Shown: piece by piece, positions 52,610 through 61,650 of the stretch
Layout of the letters: each line of letters begins with the position of its first letter
Numbering within the stretch: the stretch's first letter is position 1
Assembly (NCBI RefSeq): GCF_011759375.1
Contig: NZ_JAARML010000001.1
Span: forward strand, 2,046,001 to 2,110,000
DNA: 64,000 nucleotides
Origin: Paraflavitalea devenefica
GTDB lineage: Bacteria; Bacteroidota; Bacteroidia; Chitinophagales; Chitinophagaceae
Direction: 5' to 3'
The notes under the pieces: generated by a model
Seen by the model: the letters and a program-made list of their open reading frames with translations, nothing else
Databases searched by the model: none
Told to the model about the DNA's origin: nothing
Position numbers and translations under genes: made by a program

Positions 52610-52887
52610 GGCCTTTCTTTTCCTTTCTCTTATTTTCATCTACTTACCTAACACAATGCTTATCAGCACTGCATTGTAGAAGATTTCATATTTTTTCCAT
52701 CGTTTTATTTTGTTGTTGGACTTTAAACCTCTAAATTAGTTCTGAGATACGGAGGTACAAGAATTTTAGAGGCGTGGAGAAATTATTGCACTTTAATGCT
52801 CTTTAGTTCATTATAGTGCATTAAAATCATCCCCCAATGCAGTATTGGCGATTATTGCATAGTTAACAAGTAAACGATTTTCAGGTT
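52610..52887. other. Probable left-end region of the element with inverted repeats
   Basis: 278 bp of AT-rich sequence without a gene. It holds CCTCTAAA (52728-52735) with TTTAGAGG (52765-52772), TGCACTTTAATG (52787-52798) with CATTATAGTGCA (52809-52820, 11 of 12 matches), and AATGC/GCATT near 52660-52675. These may be integrase or regulator binding sites. No tRNA gene is present. Confidence 0.5.
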
Positions 52888-53286
52888 ATGAGCAGTAATA
52901 TCAGAATACAAAAGGCATGTTTACATTGTAAAAAGGTGTTTACAGCAAAGACAACAGTGACTAAGTTCTGTTCTGATGATTGCGCAAAACGTAATTATAA
53001 ACTGAGGATGCGCGGTGAGAAATTGCAGGCTTCAAAAGAAGGCGCAAGAAATGAAATGGATCAATTACTTAATAGTAATACTCCAAAGAATGTGCAGGAA
53101 ACGGTGTCTATGGAGAAAGCTCTTATCAATGTAAAGGAATTGGCTGTACTAATAGGCATTAGTAGAAGAAGCATTTTTAATTTGATGGAAGATAAAAGCT
53201 TTCCCCGTATAAAAATTGGAAGGAAGTTGCTGTTTGATAAGAACCAGGTTCTTGAATTTATTAAATCTAAATACGGCAGTCTATGA
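52888..53286 (+). CDS. Zinc-ribbon and helix-turn-helix protein
   Basis: 132 residues. N-terminal Cys set C11-x2-C14 and C28-x3-C32 (CLHCKKVF ... FCSDDCAKR) looks like a small zinc ribbon. The C-terminal half is an HTH_17/excisionase-type DNA-binding domain (ALINVKELAVLIGISRRSIFNLMEDKSFPRIKIGRKLLFDKNQVLEFI). Its stop overlaps the integrase start (ATGA), so the two are translationally coupled. It probably regulates excision or integrase expression. This gene pair is recurrent at one end of Bacteroidota elements. Confidence 0.8.
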   Translation: MSSNIRIQKACLHCKKVFTAKTTVTKFCSDDCAKRNYKLRMRGEKLQASKEGARNEMDQLLNSNTPKNVQETVSMEKALINVKELAVLIGISRRSIFNLMEDKSFPRIKIGRKLLFDKNQVLEFIKSKYGSL

Positions 53287-54410
53287 GAGGTGCCTTGCGT
53301 AAAAAGAAACTGAAGAGCGGGAAATTAAGCCTGTACATTGATTATTACCCGCCGGTATGGAATCCGCAAACCAAACAATATACCCGAAGGGAGTTTTTGA
53401 ATTTGCACCTTCACGCAAATCCCGTTACTACTCTTGAAAAACAAGAGAATAAATTATATACGGAGATCGCAGAAAAGATTTACTTGAAACGAATGAAAGC
53501 GCTAATGCTGGAAGAAAACGGCCTTTTCAATAAAGATGTGCTGGAAGGTGATTTCTTTGTTTATGCCTTAAATTTTATTCGTGCTAAACAGAAAGAAAAA
53601 GTAGATACCACGCATTATGAAACTGCCATCAAATACCTGAAAAGATGGATGGGAGAGCATCTTAAGTTCCGCCATATTGATGAAAAGCTATTGCAGAAGT
53701 TTAAAGATTACCTGTTGTCTACTCATTCGCTTAAATCCAAATCAGAAAAGCTAAAACAGAACTCGGCAGCATCGTACTATGATAAATTCGCCGTCGTTGT
53801 TCAACAGGCATTTCTGGATAAGTATTTAACTGAGGATTACACAGTAAGAGTTCCACGGATCAGTAATGTGGAAACATTCCGGCAGATCATTGATGATGAA
53901 GAGCTGAAGCTCTTACTTGAAAACCCTATTGAAGATGAAACGGTATTTAAGTCATCCATATTTGCATTATTATCCGGATTCAGGTTCAGTGCTTTGAAAA
54001 TTATAAAATGGAGTGACTTTCATTATTCCACTGCCTTAAATGCCTGGTATGTATATATTATTGACCCTAAGCCAGACCGTTCTTTTAAGCATTATATCAG
54101 CCATCAGGCTGTCAATATATTGGGAAAGAAGAAGGAAGGAGATCAATTGGTATTTCCTGATTTGAATTATTCCAGGACAAGGACAAAGCTAAAAGAGTGG
54201 TTCAGTAACGTTGGATTAAAGGATAAGGCGAAATTTCATAACTGGCGCCATAAATACGCCACTGATCTTATTGAGAAGGGAGAGGATATTTATGTGGTCA
54301 GTAAAATGCTCAATCATAAGCATGTTAAGACTACACAGATATATGCCAAAGTGCCTGATACCAATAGGGCGAAAGCGGCCAGCAAAGCAATTTATAGTCA
54401 CTTAAACTGA
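53283..54410 (+). CDS. Tyrosine recombinase (integrase)
   Basis: Site-specific recombinase that inserts and excises the element. 375 residues. N-terminal arm-binding and SAM-like core-binding domains (FFVYALNFIRAKQKEK ... HYETAIKYLKRWMG), then the catalytic domain with R234 (SGFRFSAL), H319-x-x-R322 (FHNWRHKYAT), H345 (MLNHKHVKTTQ) and Y354 (IYAKV). All catalytic residues are present, so it should be active. ATGA overlap with the preceding gene. Confidence 0.95.
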   Translation: MRGALRKKKLKSGKLSLYIDYYPPVWNPQTKQYTRREFLNLHLHANPVTTLEKQENKLYTEIAEKIYLKRMKALMLEENGLFNKDVLEGDFFVYALNFIRAKQKEKVDTTHYETAIKYLKRWMGEHLKFRHIDEKLLQKFKDYLLSTHSLKSKSEKLKQNSAASYYDKFAVVVQQAFLDKYLTEDYTVRVPRISNVETFRQIIDDEELKLLLENPIEDETVFKSSIFALLSGFRFSALKIIKWSDFHYSTALNAWYVYIIDPKPDRSFKHYISHQAVNILGKKKEGDQLVFPDLNYSRTRTKLKEWFSNVGLKDKAKFHNWRHKYATDLIEKGEDIYVVSKMLNHKHVKTTQIYAKVPDTNRAKAASKAIYSHLN

Positions 54411-54415
54411 GGAAT

Positions 54416-54763
54416 ATGAATACAAGTGCGTTTGAACAGCGACTCGATCGGATGGAAACTGAAATCCGGCAATTAAAAATGATGCTTAGTGAGTTATTAG
54501 AGATTACAAAGGCAGCTTTCCAATCTCATGCCCATGAAAATATCATGTCAGCGAAAGAGGTCGCCGATTTTCTGGGGTTGGATATTAATATCGTTTATGC
54601 CAAGTGCTCCAAAGGTGAAATTCCTTGCTTCAAGATGGGTAAGTTGTATAAGTTCAGAAAATCGGAGATCCTGGAATGGGTGAAAAAACAGGATAGTACT
54701 TCTGCTTTTTCCGTCGATGATTACGTCGATAGGTATTTGCAGAAGAATATTTTGAAAGGATAA
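54416..54763 (+). CDS. Excisionase-type helix-turn-helix protein
   Basis: 115 residues. An N-terminal coiled coil (RLDRMETEIRQLKMMLSELLEI) precedes an HTH_17 domain (IMSAKEVADFLGLDINIVYAKCSKGEIPCFKMGKLYKFRKSEILEWVKKQ). It starts 5 bp after the integrase stop, so all three genes form one operon. Likely recombination directionality factor or local regulator. The 224-bp gap that follows holds the Fic operator array. Confidence 0.8.
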   Translation: MNTSAFEQRLDRMETEIRQLKMMLSELLEITKAAFQSHAHENIMSAKEVADFLGLDINIVYAKCSKGEIPCFKMGKLYKFRKSEILEWVKKQDSTSAFSVDDYVDRYLQKNILKG

Positions 54764-54859
54764 CGATAAAAGACGGATCACTGGGCAATAGTTATTCAGC
54801 GGCCTAGGACGGGAGTGATAAATCCAGTTGTTGCATAAAAAGCAATAACTCACTTTTGC

Positions 54860-54986
54860 AACGTATTAACTTTTATTGACAATCAATGAATTAGTGATTA
54901 TTTTCCTGATAAATCGGCTCAAAACGTATTAAATCGTCTCACTTTGGCCTGAGTTTAATCGTATATTTGCGTCTCAAATCGTCTCA
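54860..54986 (+). promoter_or_regulatory. Operator-like repeat array and promoter before the Fic gene
   Basis: AAATCG(G/T)CTCA occurs at 54911-54921, 54931-54941 and 54976-54986, and an extra CGTCTCA at 54970-54976. AACGTATTAA occurs twice (54860-54869, 54923-54932). The -7 box TATATTTG (54962-54969) is flanked by these sites, so a protein bound to them would block transcription. The -33 element is weak (TTTG at 54943, spacer 15). Confidence 0.65.
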
Positions 54987-54987
54987 G

Positions 54988-56457
54988 ATGTCTGAAATGA
55001 AAATTCATACGTTAATTTTTAGTCCTAATAACTGGATGCAACTGGCTCAGGAACTTAGTCAATTGGATCGCTTTGATGCTCAATGGCAAGCAATAGAGCG
55101 GCGGGAGCAAAAAACGTTAAAAGAATTAAAGTCAATCGCCACCGTAAGAAGTGTTGGTGCTTCTACCCGTATAGAAGGATCACGCCTGTCTGACAAGGAA
55201 GTCGAAGTGCTGATTGAAAATCTGGATATCAATAAATTGACCGAAAGGGATGAGCAGGAAGTGGCAGGATATTACGAAACCCTGAACCTCATAGGGGAAT
55301 CATACCGCGATATTCCAGTTGCAGAGACCAGTATCAGGCAACTGCATAATACCCTAATGAAGTATAGTTCAAAGGATAATTATCATAAAGGGGCTTATAA
55401 GATCAACACCAATCGGGTAGAACGAACCGAAGCAGATGGGCGTAAAACAACTATTTTCGAAACAACTTCTCCCGGTTGGGCTACTCAAGAGGCAATGACG
55501 CAACTTATCAACTGGTACAACAATGATTCAACCACGCACTCATTAATCAAGGTAGCTCTTTTCATTTATGAGTTCTTGAGTATACATCCTTTCCAGGATG
55601 GTAATGGCCGACTTAGTCGGCTGCTGGCGACATTACTGCTAATGAAGAGCGGGTATGTATGGATAGAGTATGTGAGTTTTGAGCATGAGATTGAGCACCG
55701 AAAAAAAGAATATTATAAAAAATTAATGGAGGCACAGCGCAACAGGCCTGGTGAAGATGTAACAGAATGGGCTTACTTTTTCCTTGATTGTTTAAAAAAT
55801 ATTCAGGGTCAGTTATTGCAAAAAGTAAAAGAAAAAGAACAGCGTGAGAGTATTGGTGTACGTGAGCAGCACATTTATGCAATGGTCGAAAACAATCCCG
55901 GCATTAGCAGTGGGGAGATATCGAAAAAACTAAGTATACCTAATTCAACGGTGAAACGTATTCTGGCAGATCTTGTATCTGCTAGAAATCTCATTGTACA
56001 CGGAGCAGGTAGGGGAACTAGCTACAGCATTGCAACAACGGATTTGGTACAACGAGACGTTGCAATGATATTGACTAACGAAGAGCCGGTTAAGGAATTC
56101 ACTTTATCGCAATTGGGAGCGTTTTTCAGAATTAAGAAAATTGTATTGACGCCCAAATTCGAATGGAAACATCCTGATGAATGGGTCCGGAAACTTTCGC
56201 AAAATGGCCTTTACATTACAGTTAATGTAGCAACAAGTAAAGGAATAGTAGTTCAGCAGAGGTATTCAATATTTGGATATAATGATCCAACTTACTATCA
56301 ACCGGTTTTACTTGTAACACCAAATATAATCTTACCTGATCTGCTTGGAAGTAATGGCGTATTAAAAGTCGATTATCCGGTTAGATGCCGTATTGAGTTA
56401 TCAGGTAGTATTGATAATTTTGATTTCGATGTGATGCTGGTCACAGATCAAGGTTAA
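54988..56457 (+). CDS. Fic-domain protein with C-terminal winged helix
   Basis: 489 residues from the ATG at 54988 (an in-frame TTG at 54967 overlaps the -7 box). The Fic motif HPFQDGNGRLSR starts at H200 and is complete, so AMP transfer to a hydroxyl side chain is expected. S59-TRI-E63-G64 matches the inhibitory motif (S/T)xxxE(G/N), N-terminal to the Fic core, making it a class II, self-inhibited enzyme. After the core comes a winged helix (MVENNPGISSGEISKKLSIPNSTVKRILADL) and a C-terminal domain of about 110 residues that I do not recognise. It may regulate itself through the repeats in front of it. Target unknown. Confidence 0.9.
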   Translation: MSEMKIHTLIFSPNNWMQLAQELSQLDRFDAQWQAIERREQKTLKELKSIATVRSVGASTRIEGSRLSDKEVEVLIENLDINKLTERDEQEVAGYYETLNLIGESYRDIPVAETSIRQLHNTLMKYSSKDNYHKGAYKINTNRVERTEADGRKTTIFETTSPGWATQEAMTQLINWYNNDSTTHSLIKVALFIYEFLSIHPFQDGNGRLSRLLATLLLMKSGYVWIEYVSFEHEIEHRKKEYYKKLMEAQRNRPGEDVTEWAYFFLDCLKNIQGQLLQKVKEKEQRESIGVREQHIYAMVENNPGISSGEISKKLSIPNSTVKRILADLVSARNLIVHGAGRGTSYSIATTDLVQRDVAMILTNEEPVKEFTLSQLGAFFRIKKIVLTPKFEWKHPDEWVRKLSQNGLYITVNVATSKGIVVQQRYSIFGYNDPTYYQPVLLVTPNIILPDLLGSNGVLKVDYPVRCRIELSGSIDNFDFDVMLVTDQG

Positions 56458-56464
56458 TCCTGAC

Positions 56465-56487
56465 CAATGTGCAATTTTTGCACATTG
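56465..56487. promoter_or_regulatory. Perfect 10-bp inverted repeat between Fic and the next gene
   Basis: CAATGTGCAA (56465-56474), loop TTT, TTGCACATTG (56478-56487). No T-run follows, so an operator is as likely as a terminator. Confidence 0.5.
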
Positions 56488-56545
56488 CAAATAGGTGATT
56501 TGTGTAAATTATTTATTATATTAGTGAAGGTATAAATTGTGATGT

Positions 56546-57595
56546 ATGAATATGTTGATGCAGGTAAAAGACGTACCTTTTAGTGTAAGGGTCAGAGAAA
56601 CCAATGCCTTTATCAGGGAAATTCCCTATAAAGACCAGCCCAAAAAGGCCTTCGGGTGGCCGGTTGACTTTGATTTTGTGGCCAGCCATGCCCTACACAA
56701 CCACTACTGTATTTCCTTCCTTAATTGCCCATTTCGATTGGATTTTGATAACCTGTTAGCGCACTTTGATTGGTGTTGCAAGTACTTGTATTTCAATTTC
56801 GAACAGTCAGTTCTTAGGATTGAAATCTTTACCAGACTGGAGGAACTTCGATTGAGCCACGATAAAATCGAGTACATGGTGCAAGTATTGGCCCGATATC
56901 CGATGGCTTATAGCTATAACCTGGAAAATGCGGACTTCCGGCAGAAGTGGGCGCTCCTGAAGAAATCAAACTTTCAAAAATGCCATACGTTCCGGCAGAT
57001 TGTGGACATTGACCGGACCCAAAGGCTATTATTAGCCGAACAGTTTCGGGCAATACTGGATGAATTAAAGGTAACTCCCCCTGCAGAACACATAAATCCA
57101 AGGGGTATGTCCACCCCGGTGATGAAACTGATACCCAACAACCGGACGGCCCCACGTAGAGAACGGGAAGCCAGTTTGTATAATTTTCTCAAATTAAACG
57201 AGGATTTTTCCCCGGAACTTCATCAAAAAGTAATAGATCATTTATATAATCTTCTGGAACCCTGTTTCCGGAACTCCTACACGCGCAAGAATTTTGCCCT
57301 CCTGTTCACTAGCGAAGAGTCCTCTGTCTTGGAGTTGATCAAAAAGTCTACCTGGGATAACCAATGCTTTGCCATTCTGTTCAGGGAGCTGAAAAAAGAG
57401 AAAGTGTTACAGGTTTCCTGGCTTGTTATAGATAAAAAAGTCAGGGTATACAAAAGTGAAGGTGATGCTTTTTCCGGTTTTTCAGATGTAAGTAACGGAA
57501 AGATTGATGCACAAAAGCGCAACCGGGTCAGGAAAGCCATAGAACCGCTATTGACCTTGATTAGGAACGAATTAGCCCCTGCCAAGAGAAAATGA
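56546..57595 (+). CDS. Protein of unknown function in the element core
   Basis: 349 residues, soluble, no signal peptide or membrane segment. I recognise no family. Visible are many aromatic and Cys residues in the first 140 (WPVDFDFVASHALHNHYCISFLNCPFRLDFDNLLAHFDWCCKYLYFNFEQ), a basic stretch around 205-215 (NNRTAPRREREAS), and a helical C-terminal half with QKRNRVRKAIEPLLTLIRNE, so nucleic-acid binding is possible. It lies between the Fic gene and an HTH gene on the same strand. Start: ATG at 56546; ATGs at 56552 and 56558 are also possible. Confidence 0.7.
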   Translation: MNMLMQVKDVPFSVRVRETNAFIREIPYKDQPKKAFGWPVDFDFVASHALHNHYCISFLNCPFRLDFDNLLAHFDWCCKYLYFNFEQSVLRIEIFTRLEELRLSHDKIEYMVQVLARYPMAYSYNLENADFRQKWALLKKSNFQKCHTFRQIVDIDRTQRLLLAEQFRAILDELKVTPPAEHINPRGMSTPVMKLIPNNRTAPRREREASLYNFLKLNEDFSPELHQKVIDHLYNLLEPCFRNSYTRKNFALLFTSEESSVLELIKKSTWDNQCFAILFRELKKEKVLQVSWLVIDKKVRVYKSEGDAFSGFSDVSNGKIDAQKRNRVRKAIEPLLTLIRNELAPAKRK

Positions 57596-57704
57596 GCACA
57601 ATTCATCGCTAAATAATATCCGGTTTTTACTTCCATTTTCCGCTGTTTACCGAAAATCGGTATTTCCTGACAGGACATTTGCTGTGAATCAAAATTGAGA
57701 AGAT

Positions 57705-57986
57705 ATGACACAGCAGATGCAGTTTATTGGATTCAGTATAGAACAAGCCAAATCGTTTATACAGGATATAGTAAGATCCTGCCTGGAAGAAAATATACCT
57801 CCCGTAAAGAATATAGCAGAGATGCCCCTTACCATCAAGCAAGCCTGTAAAATCATTGGAGTTTCTGCCCCAACACTCCGAAAATATGTTGACATGGGGG
57901 TAATTCGTCGGCATGACCTTGGCCCACGAAAAAAAGTATTTTATCCTTCCGAGTTGGAAGATGATATTAAGAGGATCAGGAAGTGA
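57705..57986 (+). CDS. Small helix-turn-helix protein
   Basis: 93 residues. After an N-terminal helix (SIEQAKSFIQDIVRSCLEENI) comes an HTH_17/MerR-like domain (MPLTIKQACKIIGVSAPTLRKYVDMGVIRRHDLGPRKKVFYPSELEDDIKRI). Likely a regulator or excisionase-like factor of the element. Located 61 bp before the primase-like gene. A short palindrome (TACCGA AAA TCGGTA, 57648-57662) upstream might be its own operator. Confidence 0.78.
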   Translation: MTQQMQFIGFSIEQAKSFIQDIVRSCLEENIPPVKNIAEMPLTIKQACKIIGVSAPTLRKYVDMGVIRRHDLGPRKKVFYPSELEDDIKRIRK

Positions 57987-58047
57987 TTCTTCTATTAATC
58001 TCTCTCCGTATTTGATTTACCATATTGTTTCAGATTAACATTTTCTT

Positions 58048-59061
58048 ATGGCATCCCTTCCGTTTTCTGTAAAGGAGGCAAAACAGCTCGACCTGGTTGC
58101 CTTTCTGTCTCATCTTGGCCATCATCCGCAAAGGATAAAAGGACAGGATTATTGGTATTTGTCACCTCTACGACAGGAAAGAACCGCCTCCTTTAAGGTC
58201 AACCGGAAGTTAAATGTGTGGTTTGATTTTGGTTCTGGACAGGGCGGTAACCTGGTGGATTTTGGCGTTTTGTATTTCAATTGCCCGGTAAAAACGCTGC
58301 TGCAAAAACTGTCGGACATGGGGTTGCCCGGGGGATTAAGGGTTTATCAGCCTGCCCGGGTGGGTAACCCGCTCATTGTTCCCAGTCCCGAGGCGGGTGA
58401 AAAGAAAGAGACCCCTTCTTCCCGGATTGCCATTCTGGACACCGGCCCGCTGCGTTCACCTGCACTGCTACATTACTTACAAGACCGGGCTATCCCGGTT
58501 GATCTGGCAAAAGTTTATTGTCAGGAAGTACGGTACAGTCTGTATGGCAAAACCTTTTATGCCATTGGGTTTCCCAATAATGAAGGCGGTTATGAATTAC
58601 GGAACCTGCATTTTAAAGGTAGCAGCTCTCCCAAAACTGTTAGGTTTATTAACAACCAGGCGCTAGACATAGCTGTCTTTGAAGGATTTTTCAGTTTCCT
58701 TTCTTTCGTTGCGGTCCGGCAGAATACCCCACCATCAGCCACCAACTACCTGGTACTAAACTCCCTTTCCTTCTTTCAAAAGAGCAGGCCTGTATTAGAA
58801 CAGTACCAGCAAATCAATCTGTACCTGGACCGGGATAAAGCGGGTCAGGATTGTACAGAGCAGGCACTTGCTATCAGTAATCAATACAAAGATGGAAGTA
58901 GGTTATACGTCGGTTACAAAGACTGTAACCAGTTCCTGATTGCCCGGCAAGCAAAAGTTTTAAAACAAACGGAAGATGTGGGAAAGGCCCGAAGCATTTA
59001 CAAACAATTTAAGATGGGGCCTGATAATCCTCCTGGTGACAAGAAGCGCAGACTGGGGTAA
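58048..59061 (+). CDS. Toprim primase-like protein with degenerate zinc finger
   Basis: 337 residues. The N-terminal part has the layout of a CHC2 primase finger but the zinc-binding residues are replaced: WYLSPLRQERTASFKVNRKLNVWFDFGSGQGGNLVDF corresponds to the usual CPFHxEKTPSF region. The C-terminal half is a Toprim fold (DIAVFEGFFSFLSFVAV with its Glu, LYLDRDKAGQDC with the DxD). It may prime replication of the transferred strand after mobilization. Such genes are frequent in Bacteroidota elements. The basic tail ends PPGDKKRRLG. Confidence 0.8.
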   Translation: MASLPFSVKEAKQLDLVAFLSHLGHHPQRIKGQDYWYLSPLRQERTASFKVNRKLNVWFDFGSGQGGNLVDFGVLYFNCPVKTLLQKLSDMGLPGGLRVYQPARVGNPLIVPSPEAGEKKETPSSRIAILDTGPLRSPALLHYLQDRAIPVDLAKVYCQEVRYSLYGKTFYAIGFPNNEGGYELRNLHFKGSSSPKTVRFINNQALDIAVFEGFFSFLSFVAVRQNTPPSATNYLVLNSLSFFQKSRPVLEQYQQINLYLDRDKAGQDCTEQALAISNQYKDGSRLYVGYKDCNQFLIARQAKVLKQTEDVGKARSIYKQFKMGPDNPPGDKKRRLG

Positions 59062-59099
59062 ACCAACCTTTTTCTTTTCACCCGCTAACAGAAACAAAC

Positions 59100-59492
59100 A
59101 TGTATACAATTCAAACAAGTATTATGGCAGAACTAAAAAGAAAGGTCTTAACGCTTTCATCTGGAAAGCAAATCCGGCTGTATGGCAACAGTGTAGCCAT
59201 CAGCCGATCACTGGAAATAGGGGAAGGGTATGCTCCTAATATTCTTTCCGGCAATAATGAACAGCCCGGCAATACTTCCGCTGGTGTTATTAATCCGTAT
59301 AAGTTGACGCCGGATGAACTGATGGAACTGGCTGACTTCAATATTCAGCTTTGGATGGATTTAAAAGCAAATATCCGCCGGTTTGGTGTGAGTAGCCCCA
59401 GGATATTCACAGGAGAATCTGGCAAGCAACCAACGGAAACAACTGGCAATAAAAAGACTGGCCTAAGCAGTAGACAGCAGGCAACGGAATAA
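59100..59492 (+). CDS. Small element protein of unknown function
   Basis: 130 residues; start may instead be ATG 59124 (MAELKRKV). N-terminal half LKRKVLTLSSGKQIRLYGNSVAISRSLEIGEGYAPNILS, then PYKLTPDELMELADFNIQLWMDLKANIRRFG and a Thr/Gly/Gln-rich tail. Soluble. I do not recognise the family. Placed between the primase-like gene and the oriT/mob region, which suggests a mobilization or replication helper, but this is a guess from position. Confidence 0.65.
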   Translation: MYTIQTSIMAELKRKVLTLSSGKQIRLYGNSVAISRSLEIGEGYAPNILSGNNEQPGNTSAGVINPYKLTPDELMELADFNIQLWMDLKANIRRFGVSSPRIFTGESGKQPTETTGNKKTGLSSRQQATE

Positions 59493-59663
59493 TAACCCGC
59501 CTACCGGGCGTCAGTGCATAGCTCACCTGTAATAATAGGAGCTGGCCGTTAGGTATCCTGGCCGCGCTGAAAGGCAAGCGGTGTTTTTGTAAGCCAAAAA
59601 CTGCTTGCCCTTTGCTCCCGTTGGTCTCAAAGGGAATGAAAGCCCACTGTCGTGAACCCGAAA
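59493..59663 (+). other. Candidate origin of transfer (oriT)
   Basis: Gene-free region just before mobC. A long inverted repeat pairs 59573-59589 (GGCAAGCGGTGTTTTTG) with 59595-59609 (CAAAAACTGCTTGCC). Next to it CCCTTTG (59608-59614) pairs with CAAAGGG (59628-59634). CTGGCCG is repeated nearby (about 59532 and 59559). Position before the relaxase genes and arm lengths are typical of an oriT. The nick site cannot be told. Confidence 0.55.
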
Positions 59664-60026
59664 ATGAGTGTTATGGAAACAGTAAAACCACCAAAAAATA
59701 AAGGAGGAAGGCCGGTTAAGCCGGTCAAAAAAGAAAAGATTATCACTATCCGGCTGGAGAAAACCGAGCACTTTATTGTCACCCAAAAGGCCAAAAAGGC
59801 TGGGTTAACTTGGTCGCGGTATGTCCGGGAGATGGTAGTGAGAGGGGAAGTAAAAGCCCGACTGACTGAAGAAGAAAGAAGCCTGGCCCGGCAACTGGTG
59901 GGTATGTCCACCAACTTAAACCAGTTAGCCAAAGGGTTTCATGAGGCGGGTCATGTCAAAACCGTCCTGCATTTTGAGCACTACCGTAACCAGATTGATG
60001 GCATTTTAAAAATGCTCAGGCCATGA
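59664..60026 (+). CDS. mobC: MobC-like relaxosome accessory protein
   Basis: About 120 residues from the ATG at 59664; GTG 59652 and ATG 59673 are alternatives. N-terminal Lys/Pro-rich segment (KNKGGRPVKPVKKEK), a ribbon-helix-helix-like IITIRLEKTEHFIVTQKAKKAGLTWSRYVREMVV, and a C-terminal MobC helix (LARQLVGMSTNLNQLAKGFHEAG). It probably binds oriT and recruits the relaxase. It overlaps the relaxase gene by 4 bp (ATGA), so they are translationally coupled. Confidence 0.88.
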   Translation: MSVMETVKPPKNKGGRPVKPVKKEKIITIRLEKTEHFIVTQKAKKAGLTWSRYVREMVVRGEVKARLTEEERSLARQLVGMSTNLNQLAKGFHEAGHVKTVLHFEHYRNQIDGILKMLRP

Positions 60027-61009
60027 TCAGCAAAAATTTCCCAGGCCATTCTTTCTATCATGCTGCCCGGTATATGTGCAATAAACCGGAAGCAGGGGTA
60101 CTGGCCACCGAAGGAGTAAGGGGACATGATTATAGGCTTATGGCCGAAGATTTCAACCGGCAACACTCCCTGCGTCCTTCCAAAAAGCAGGCATGTTTTC
60201 ACAGTGTGCTCAGTTTTTATCCCGGTGAAGATCCCGGCGATGCCACCATCACCGAAATTGCCCGGAAGTACCTGGAAGGATTGGGCATCAGCAATACCCA
60301 ATATGCCATCGTCAAACACGCAGACAAAAAACACCTCCATGTCCATATTCTGGCCAATATGGTGAATAACGACGGAAAGGTAATTTCCGATAGCTGGATA
60401 GGCTTTAAAGGTAAAAAGCTGGCCCAGCAACTCACCCAGGAGTATAAACTCATACAGGTAGAACGAAAAAATTTAAGCCTCACGAACCTGGAAGCCCTCA
60501 CTGAATCACAAGCCAATCGCTATACCATTTACATGACCATGATGGAGATCCTGCCCGGTTGTCTGAGCCTGGAAGAATTGGAAAGCCGGTTATTAGAGCG
60601 GGGCATTATCACCCAGTATAAATACAAAGGTCAAACCCAGGAGAAGCAGGGCATCAGTTTTAAGATCGGCAGCGATTGCTTCAAGGGCAGTAAAATAGAC
60701 CGAAAGTTTTCATTAGCCGGCTTACAAAAGATAATTGCCTATAACCTACGGCATCAGATAAAACCATCTATCAGCGCAAGCAAGCCTGTAAATAGTCAGG
60801 GATCCACCAGTAACCAATTACTGGAGAAGTTGGGCGCCACAGCCGATTGGCTGGAATCTATTTTCCGGGAGTCGCAGCAATTGGGTAGCCTGGGAGTCGC
60901 TGCAATTGATGCTTTATTAAAGGACGAGCCCGCTCATGAACAAGGTATTAATCCCGCCTTACTTGAAGAAGCGCGCCGTAAAAAGAAAAGAAAGAAACCT
61001 AAGCTGTAA
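60023..61009 (+). CDS. mobA: Relaxase / mobilization nuclease (MobA/VirD2 type)
   Basis: 328 residues, relaxase family PF03432. The metal-binding signature is H106-x-H108-x3-N112 in KHLHVHILANMVN, with the supporting FHSVLSFYPGED and a likely catalytic Tyr near the N-terminus (Y12 or Y17). The C-terminal end is very basic (RRKKKRKKPKL). It nicks oriT and leads the strand into a recipient. Compared with MobA proteins carrying a primase or helicase domain, it is short. ATGA overlap with mobC. Confidence 0.92.
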   Translation: MISKNFPGHSFYHAARYMCNKPEAGVLATEGVRGHDYRLMAEDFNRQHSLRPSKKQACFHSVLSFYPGEDPGDATITEIARKYLEGLGISNTQYAIVKHADKKHLHVHILANMVNNDGKVISDSWIGFKGKKLAQQLTQEYKLIQVERKNLSLTNLEALTESQANRYTIYMTMMEILPGCLSLEELESRLLERGIITQYKYKGQTQEKQGISFKIGSDCFKGSKIDRKFSLAGLQKIIAYNLRHQIKPSISASKPVNSQGSTSNQLLEKLGATADWLESIFRESQQLGSLGVAAIDALLKDEPAHEQGINPALLEEARRKKKRKKPKL

Positions 61010-61038
61010 AACCCACACAACAATTAAACCTATTATTT

Positions 61039-61650
61039 ATGAGTGAGCTTTTCAATGATATGATGGTAGAGTCCATGCAGGCCCAGGAAAGAAAGGTCGG
61101 GGAGTTAACAAAGGATATAGCCGAGTTAAAAGAAATGGCTAAAGTATTTCCGTCATTGGCCCAACTGATAGCAAAACTGGAACTCCGATTGATTAGCCTG
61201 GAAAAAAAGCTGGCGGAAGTAAATTTTCCTGTGCGGGGTATGCAAACACTGTCTAATAAGGTGGAAGAAGGGATAATTGTCTGGCAAAAGCCAAAAGAAA
61301 TAATCCATCATTATCATGTTCATAAACTGATGTATATAACAGCAGGTTTAATCCTGATACTGGTATTGGTTTGTGCTGGCTGGTTGATGACCCATGATCA
61401 ACTAAGCCTATACAAAGAGCATGACATCAAATATCGGCACCTGCAGTTTGTCAAAAGCCCCGATTTTCAAGGGCAATTAAAAATAGCAGACAGCCTTTAC
61501 CGGCAAAATGCAGACCAATTCTCCGATAGCGTTATTGTAATGGAAGAAGAACTTGCAAGACAAATCCGGCTGGCTAAAGAAATCAATCGAACCAAAGAAG
61601 AACTCGAAGAGTTACAGAAAAAGGCAGGAAACTCTTCCCGACAGCCATAA
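61039..61650 (+). CDS. Membrane-anchored coiled-coil protein in the mob region
   Basis: 203 residues. N-terminal coiled coil (about 10-65, AQERKVGELTKDIAELKEMAK and LELRLISLEKKLAE), one transmembrane segment (about 98-118, LMYITAGLILILVLVCAGWLM), then a second charged coiled coil (about 170-198, MEEELARQIRLAKEINRTKEELEELQKK). It follows the relaxase by 29 bp, so it is probably the third gene of a mobilization operon and may tether the relaxosome to the membrane. Family not recognised. Confidence 0.72.
   Translation: MSELFNDMMVESMQAQERKVGELTKDIAELKEMAKVFPSLAQLIAKLELRLISLEKKLAEVNFPVRGMQTLSNKVEEGIIVWQKPKEIIHHYHVHKLMYITAGLILILVLVCAGWLMTHDQLSLYKEHDIKYRHLQFVKSPDFQGQLKIADSLYRQNADQFSDSVIVMEEELARQIRLAKEINRTKEELEELQKKAGNSSRQP

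What the first reader, a model, noticed from the sequence alone, without database searches (positions are those of the whole stretch)
54860..56457. Fic enzyme with its own DNA-binding domain and an operator array around its -7 box
Seen: four CGKCTCA sites, three in the form AAATCGKCTCA, with centre spacings 20, 35 and 10 bp around TATATTTG, plus two AACGTATTAA copies; the protein has an intact Fic motif, a class II inhibitory motif and a winged helix. Inferred: the Fic protein represses itself by binding these repeats, and AMPylation state may set its DNA binding, linking element transfer to a signal. The spacing of 10 and 20 bp fits one face of the helix.
Basis: partly seen in the sequence, partly recalled or inferred. 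Interest (0 to 1): 0.6.

Follow-up and report, generated by a model that had tools for sequence, protein, structure and literature searches.

The report
Fic enzyme promoter with phased repeats
A bacterial protein-modifying enzyme (Fic) that carries its own DNA-binding domain sits behind a promoter wrapped in short repeats spaced exactly one DNA turn apart; the same arrangement precedes its relatives across several bacterial phyla and changes letters in step with one residue of the protein, so the enzyme very probably switches off its own gene.

Summary
The four CGKCTCA sites, the TATATTTG box and both AACGTATTAA copies are where stated. One AACGTATTAA copy and the -7 box are themselves in register, giving two triplets of 7-bp direct repeats with an exact 10-bp period (54915/25/35 and 54960/70/80). 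No neighbouring gene is conserved. A blind search for the operator led back mostly to fic genes or remnants. The repeat's 3' letters follow recognition-helix residue 321: Arg with TCA, Lys with TA (43 of 46). So the Fic protein very probably binds the array and represses itself. Such self-repression is proven for CccR of Yersinia; the helically phased direct-repeat operator and its specificity code were not found in the papers searched. AMPylation-controlled binding and a link to element transfer have no support: catalytically dead CccR still represses, and no other promoter here carries the operator. New variant of a known kind.

The parts
54915..54921 (+). repeat site 1, CGGCTCA (position -47 relative to the first base of the -7 box)
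   Evidence: CGTCTCA / TGTATCA at the same place in orthologues L011 / L012
54935..54941 (+). repeat site 3, CGTCTCA (position -27), over the expected -33 region
54960..54966 (+). repeat site 4, CGTATAT, overlapping the -7 box, in 10-bp register
   Evidence: a site at -2 is seen in most of the 24 loci with a box
54962..54969 (+). -7 box TATATTTG (Bacteroidota TAnnTTTG type)
   Evidence: conserved in orthologues
54970..54976 (+). repeat site 5, CGTCTCA (position +8)
54980..54986 (+). repeat site 6, CGTCTCA (position +18), next to the start codon
54862..54868 (+). outlying degenerate site CGTATTA (the other AACGTATTAA); 53 bp from site 1, probably not part of the core operator
54997..56457 (+). 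Fic protein, 486 aa: Fic domain, C-terminal winged helix and an extra C-terminal domain
55162..55179 (+). class II type inhibitory motif STRIEG (residues 56-61)
   Evidence: [S/T/N]-R-I-E-G pattern kept in the full-length homologues examined
55585..55611 (+). Fic active-site motif HPFQDGNGR (residues 197-205)
55858..56034 (+). winged helix (residues 288-346); recognition helix 316-328 with Arg321
   Evidence: HTH_24; AlphaFold2 model; covariation
56035..56454 (+). extra beta-rich C-terminal domain (residues 347-486) found only in one subgroup; function unknown

Best explanation
The gene encodes a class II (self-inhibited) Fic adenylyltransferase whose C-terminal winged helix reads 7-bp sites (CGKMTCA type) set head to tail every 10 bp. 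Two triplets of such sites lie on one helix face, one over the expected -33 region and one running through the -7 box to the start codon. When Fic protein accumulates it fills these sites cooperatively, shuts RNA polymerase out of the promoter and so holds its own level low (negative autoregulation of a potentially toxic enzyme). Shown here: the array, its conservation in relatives, its positioning, and its letter changes in step with recognition-helix residue 321. Inferred: binding, repression and cooperativity. Speculative: a Fic dimer bridging the two triplets, whose 35- or 45-bp separation is close to the 36 bp between the two CccR half-sites.
For: Exact 7-mer pairs at 10 bp: 113 pairs in 31 of 51 non-redundant fic promoters against a shuffle mean of 1.4 (max 8); at 11 bp 34 pairs in 13 loci; 79 control promoters in the same loci have none at either distance. 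Locus by locus, 41 of 51 at p<=0.01 and 47 of 51 at p<=0.05. The paired pattern occurs 34 times in fic promoters and 0 times in the rest of 232 kb. Architecture: sites at -2/+8/+18 around the -7 box; the upstream array ends 33-35 bp (5 loci) or 42-46 bp (16 loci) before the +8 site, one turn apart, with 62-63 bp in a further three. Four orthologues: 24 of 35 repeat columns invariant against 13 of 43 others. No conserved neighbour. Residue 321 R/K against TCA/TA: 43 of 46 concordant; sister pair L044 (R, CGTATCA) and L051 (K, CGTATAT); L031 separately R with TTGGCTCA. Blind operator search: 8 of 11 genomes lead to a fic homologue, a fic remnant or another Fic gene. Plasmid homologues in Cyanobacteria and Proteobacteria have TGGNT-type tandem repeats. 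Precedent: CccR autorepression (PMC9755527).
Against: No binding or expression data. Binding to direct repeats is unusual for a symmetric dimer, and CccR is described as binding inverted repeats. L042 and L043 have Lys321 with CGAACCA, so residue 321 is not the whole code. The Fisher p ignores phylogeny; the phylogeny-aware test has only 3 independent pairs on supported branches (all concordant, p 0.25). Many promoters are related, so loci are not fully independent.
Confidence: 0.87

Rival explanations
1. The repeats are the operator of another regulator, for example one of the element's small HTH (excisionase-like) proteins, or are recombinase arm sites or iterons of the element, and only happen to lie before fic.
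For: The gene just upstream encodes an HTH_17 protein and the one before it a tyrosine integrase; integrative elements often carry direct repeats.
Against: The array precedes fic homologues with unrelated neighbours, on plasmids of other phyla, and its letters follow the Fic recognition helix.
Confidence: 0.06
2. The repeats act in the message: the downstream triplet lies in or beside the short leader and controls translation.
For: The last two sites lie between the -7 box and the start codon; in L011 and L013 the last site overlaps the ATG.
Against: Half of the array lies upstream of the promoter and cannot be in this transcript; the 10-bp phasing and the one-turn difference between loci are expected of double-stranded DNA binding; no inverted repeats were found.
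Confidence: 0.04
3. The array serves mainly as a DNA switch of the enzyme: binding holds Fic in an inactive or de-AMPylating dimer, as proposed for Coxiella CbFic2, and promoter control is secondary; or the array activates rather than represses.
For: DNA changes CbFic2 from AMPylation to de-AMPylation (PMC10628234); the model's best Foldseek match is CbFic2.
Against: The sites overlap the -7 box and the expected -33 region, a layout that fits repression; in CccR the regulatory and catalytic functions separate.
Confidence: 0.1
4. The repeats are chance or a local tandem duplication without function.
For: Single CGKCTCA sites are at chance level in the window, and shuffles of this promoter reach the observed score twice in 2000.
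Against: Statistics over 51 loci, clean control promoters, and preferential conservation of repeat columns.
Confidence: 0.01

Closest known systems
CccR of Yersinia pseudotuberculosis (Fic-HTH autorepressor; PMC9755527)
   Same: Fic domain followed by a C-terminal HTH; represses its own gene from sites near -35 and -10; about 36 bp between its two half-sites, against 35 or 45 bp between the two arrays here.
   Different: CccR is reported to bind two 10-bp inverted repeats separated by 26 bp (one pair); here there are six direct repeats in two phased triplets with other letters. CccR is a secreted T6SS effector; no secretion context was looked for here. This protein has an extra C-terminal domain.
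CbFic2 of Coxiella burnetii (PMC10628234, PDB 8cil)
   Same: Class II Fic with a C-terminal winged helix; best Foldseek match to the model.
   Different: Reported to bind random DNA with high affinity, with no operator described; studied as a histone-modifying effector.
SoFic (Shewanella; listed by PADLOC as an anti-phage defence protein; PDB 3eqx, 3zec)
   Same: Fic plus winged helix; PADLOC SoFic profile matches at E 1.3e-46.
   Different: Fails NCBIfam's SoFic equivalog cut-off (56.8 bits against 550); no operator array described in the papers read; defence not tested here.
OmpR/PhoB-type response regulators (from general knowledge)
   Same: Winged helices on head-to-tail direct repeats spaced 10-11 bp.
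   Different: No receiver domain, not homologous as a whole; likeness of operator geometry only.

Membership tests
Fic/Doc (Fido) adenylyltransferases, class II | HPFx[D/E]GN[G/K]R active-site motif | tested here: met
   HPFQDGNGR, residues 197-205; PF02661 60 bits against a cut-off of 24
Fic/Doc (Fido) adenylyltransferases, class II | Inhibitory [S/T]xxxE[G/N] motif N-terminal to the Fic core | tested here: met
   STRIEG, residues 56-61, conserved in the full-length homologues
Fic/Doc (Fido) adenylyltransferases, class II | AMP transfer to protein | not testable with these tools
   needs an assay
CccR-like Fic-HTH autorepressors | C-terminal winged helix fused to Fic | tested here: met
   HTH_24 match; AlphaFold2 model, structure matches 8cil, 4rgl and 3eqx that span both domains
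CccR-like Fic-HTH autorepressors | Candidate operator sites over the fic promoter | tested here: met
CccR-like Fic-HTH autorepressors | Operator made of inverted repeats | tested here: not met
   direct repeats; no inverted repeats at 54840-55010
CccR-like Fic-HTH autorepressors | Binding to and repression of its own promoter | not testable with these tools
   comparative evidence only
SoFic defence protein | NCBIfam equivalog score (550 bits) | tested here: not met
   56.8 bits, although the PADLOC SoFic profile matches at 1.3e-46
SoFic defence protein | Protection against phage | not testable with these tools
   needs an assay
Two-gene Fic toxin-antitoxin | Conserved adjacent antitoxin gene | tested here: not met
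   no flanking ORF shared beyond close relatives within about 1.5 kb; ORFs under 60 aa not tested

The most novel reading that the evidence does not exclude
A pan-bacterial class of enzyme-repressors in which operator occupancy is also the off-switch of the enzyme: Fic protein assembled head to tail on the phased array is held inactive or de-AMPylating, and loss or modification of the DNA (for example during phage takeover) both derepresses the gene and frees active enzyme.
Probability: 0.12. Interest if true: 0.8.

Novelty: new variant of a known kind. Interest (0 to 1): 0.58.

Why it matters
Fic-winged-helix proteins are widespread and the SoFic-type members are listed as phage-defence proteins, yet in the papers found here only CccR has a known operator. 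The results give a predicted operator for dozens of them, a simple geometry (10-bp direct repeats around the -7 box) and a testable one-residue specificity switch (Arg321 with TCA, Lys321 with TA). They point to the fic promoter itself, not a wider regulon, as the target. Head-to-tail operators are unusual for dimeric repressors, so how a Fic dimer uses them is a real structural question.

Tried and rejected
Regulon beyond fic: the paired pattern has no other promoter match in the genome; two stray matches lie inside coding sequence. Single-site statistics: uninformative, at chance level. Tandem Repeats Finder does not report the array at its score threshold. A second run of 10-bp pairs at about 52691-52921 was looked at: AT-rich sequence without the motif. 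Search for an att repeat of the element by BLAST of the mnmE end: only self and chance matches. Conserved partner or antitoxin gene: none. Identity of the extra C-terminal domain: beta sandwich, only weak unspecific matches; no statement that the fold is new. Papers describing direct-repeat operators of Fic genes: none found in the open-access library; subscription papers were not searched, so absence from the literature is not shown.

Full report
Observation. Looking at register rather than identity shows more: CGGCTCA 54915, CGTATTA 54925, CGTCTCA 54935 form one triplet with exact 10-bp steps, and CGTATAT 54960 (overlapping the -7 box TATATTTG 54962), CGTCTCA 54970, CGTCTCA 54980 form a second. 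Single sites are no more frequent in the window than chance, but the paired form is found only here in the window, and in the 8.7-Mb genome only here and inside two unrelated coding sequences.

Protein. 486 residues from the likely start ATG 54997: Fic domain (PF02661), HPFQDGNGR 197-205, STRIEG 56-61, winged helix 288-346 with recognition helix 316-328, and an extra beta-rich domain 347-486. The best Foldseek match in the PDB is CbFic2 8cil, followed by Bordetella 8uqu, 4rgl and SoFic 3eqx/3zec. PADLOC calls it SoFic at E 1.3e-46, but it is far under NCBIfam's SoFic equivalog cut-off. The AlphaFold model has low confidence around the inhibitory motif (residues 46-61), so domain arrangement should not be read from it.

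Context. The gene lies on a probable integrative element next to mnmE, after two HTH genes and a tyrosine integrase and before primase-like, MobC/NikA-like and relaxase genes. Four other genomes of the genus lack a close homologue. An att repeat was not found, so the element's ends are not defined.

Orthologues of 74% (L011, Flavisolibacter nicotianae) and 82% (L012, a Chitinophagaceae MAG) have the same array around TACATTTG/TATATTTG with other neighbours. Family and class searches gave homologues in 49 of 396 and 38 of 395 genomes. In 51 non-redundant 160-bp upstream regions, exact 7-mer pairs at 10 bp number 113 in 31 loci (shuffle mean 1.4, max 8) and at 11 bp 34 in 13 loci, with echoes at 20 and 21; other distances from 7 to 19 are far lower, the next being 12 bp with 12 pairs in 4 loci. 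None of 79 control upstream regions from the same loci has a pair at 10 or 11. Scored one by one with one mismatch allowed, 41 of 51 loci are at p<=0.01 and 47 at p<=0.05. The paired CGKMTYA pattern occurs 34 times in these promoters and nowhere else in 232 kb of fetched sequence. Among four orthologues, repeat columns are more conserved than the rest (24 of 35 against 13 of 43).

Geometry. In 24 loci with a recognisable -7 box followed by a site, sites fall at -2, +8 and +18 (three of the 24, L063-L065, have the first two only in the stretch examined), and the upstream array ends 33-35 bp (5 loci), 42-46 bp (16 loci) or 62-63 bp (3 loci) before the +8 site. The two main classes differ by one helical turn, as expected if the two arrays must keep a fixed rotation to each other. 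The third class does not fall on the same series and is left open.

Who binds. No neighbouring gene of at least 60 aa is shared beyond close relatives. Motif type follows protein type: CGTMTCA with helices ending TVKR, CGGATA[AT] with TVKK, TGGATA with NTLKK (11-bp period in many), TGGNT types in Cyanobacteria and Proteobacteria. At residue 321, Arg goes with TCA and Lys with TA in 43 of 46 loci (Fisher p 9e-10, ignoring phylogeny). On a tree of the Fic part alone the residue changes at least 6 times and the motif 7; three well-supported independent pairs all agree, which is too few for significance. Counter-examples: L042 and L043 (Lys, CGAACCA); L013 is a tie because its last site overlaps the ATG. 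In the model the residue lies on the recognition helix.

Reverse test. A blind search of 396 family genomes for TCGTMTCA-N3-CGTMTCA gave 13 matches in 11 genomes against 3 for the reversed pattern. By comparing coordinates, five are before fic homologues (G026, G056, G142, G161, G205); two precede fic N-terminal remnants (G011, G115); one precedes a gene of another Fic subfamily (G006); one lies before an AbiE-like pair (G177), one beyond the end of mnmE (G213) and one in a coding sequence (G040). G142 and G205 are themselves interrupted or partial copies. CGGCTCA or degenerate sites, as in the window, are not caught by this strict pattern.

Other phyla. Plasmid homologues of about 40% identity: Stanieria, Chroococcidiopsis, Rhizobium, Mycetohabitans, Thiothrix and Neotabrizicola all show tandem TGGNT-type repeats at 10 or 12 bp just before the start codon; in eight such loci taken together exact pairs at 10 bp are 13 against a shuffle maximum of 2. 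Phage-record homologues (L085, L086) and one truncated plasmid homologue (L079) do not show them.

Known work. Fusions of Fic with HTH domains, and the idea that the HTH regulates fic, were proposed in 2009 (PMC2686095). CccR of Yersinia was shown to repress its own gene through its HTH, from two 10-bp sites described as inverted repeats with a 26-bp spacer; the dimer is required, and the catalytic mutant H192A still represses (PMC9755527). As printed there, GATAATC occurs in the same orientation in both half-sites, so that operator might also be read as a wide direct repeat; this is my remark, not the paper's. CbFic2 is switched by DNA (PMC10628234). SoFic is a toxic phage-defence protein for which the paper read describes a small antitoxin-like protein, AS1 (PMC12249575). 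None of the papers found describes a phased direct-repeat operator.

Verdict. Negative autoregulation by the Fic protein through a helically phased direct-repeat operator: 0.87. AMPylation-dependent DNA binding and links to element transfer: no evidence. New variant of a known kind, with a family-wide operator rule and a one-residue specificity prediction that ordinary bench tests can settle.

Noticed in passing
window 56035-56454: Extra 140-aa C-terminal domain, beta-rich in the model (mean pLDDT 89), present only in the 486-aa Bacteroidota subgroup; no Pfam family above cut-off and only weak structure matches. Could be a sensor; unexplained.
   Followed up: partly
L098 / L106 (genome G011): Two copies of the fic operator array about 1.3 kb apart flank a cassette that holds a fic N-terminal remnant, as if the promoter region had been duplicated.
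   Followed up: partly
L094 (genome G177), about 1501: A fic-type operator pair lies upstream of an AbiEi/AbiEii-like toxin-antitoxin pair; may be a remnant of a lost fic gene or a borrowed operator.
   Followed up: partly
L100 (genome G213), about 375-412: Four CGTATCA repeats at 10-bp steps lie just beyond the 3' end of mnmE, the gene beside which the window's element also sits.
   Followed up: partly
window 52610-61650: Probable integrative mobilizable element beside mnmE: tyrosine integrase, three small HTH proteins, primase-like, NikA/MobC-like and relaxase genes; ends not defined.
   Followed up: partly
genome G000 (L087-L093): Seven Fic-domain genes in one genome; the 41%-identical paralogue (L010) has its own TGGATA tandem repeats before the start codon.
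   Followed up: partly
L063-L065: These loci put the upstream array 62-63 bp before the +8 site, off the 35/45 series; unexplained.
   Followed up: no
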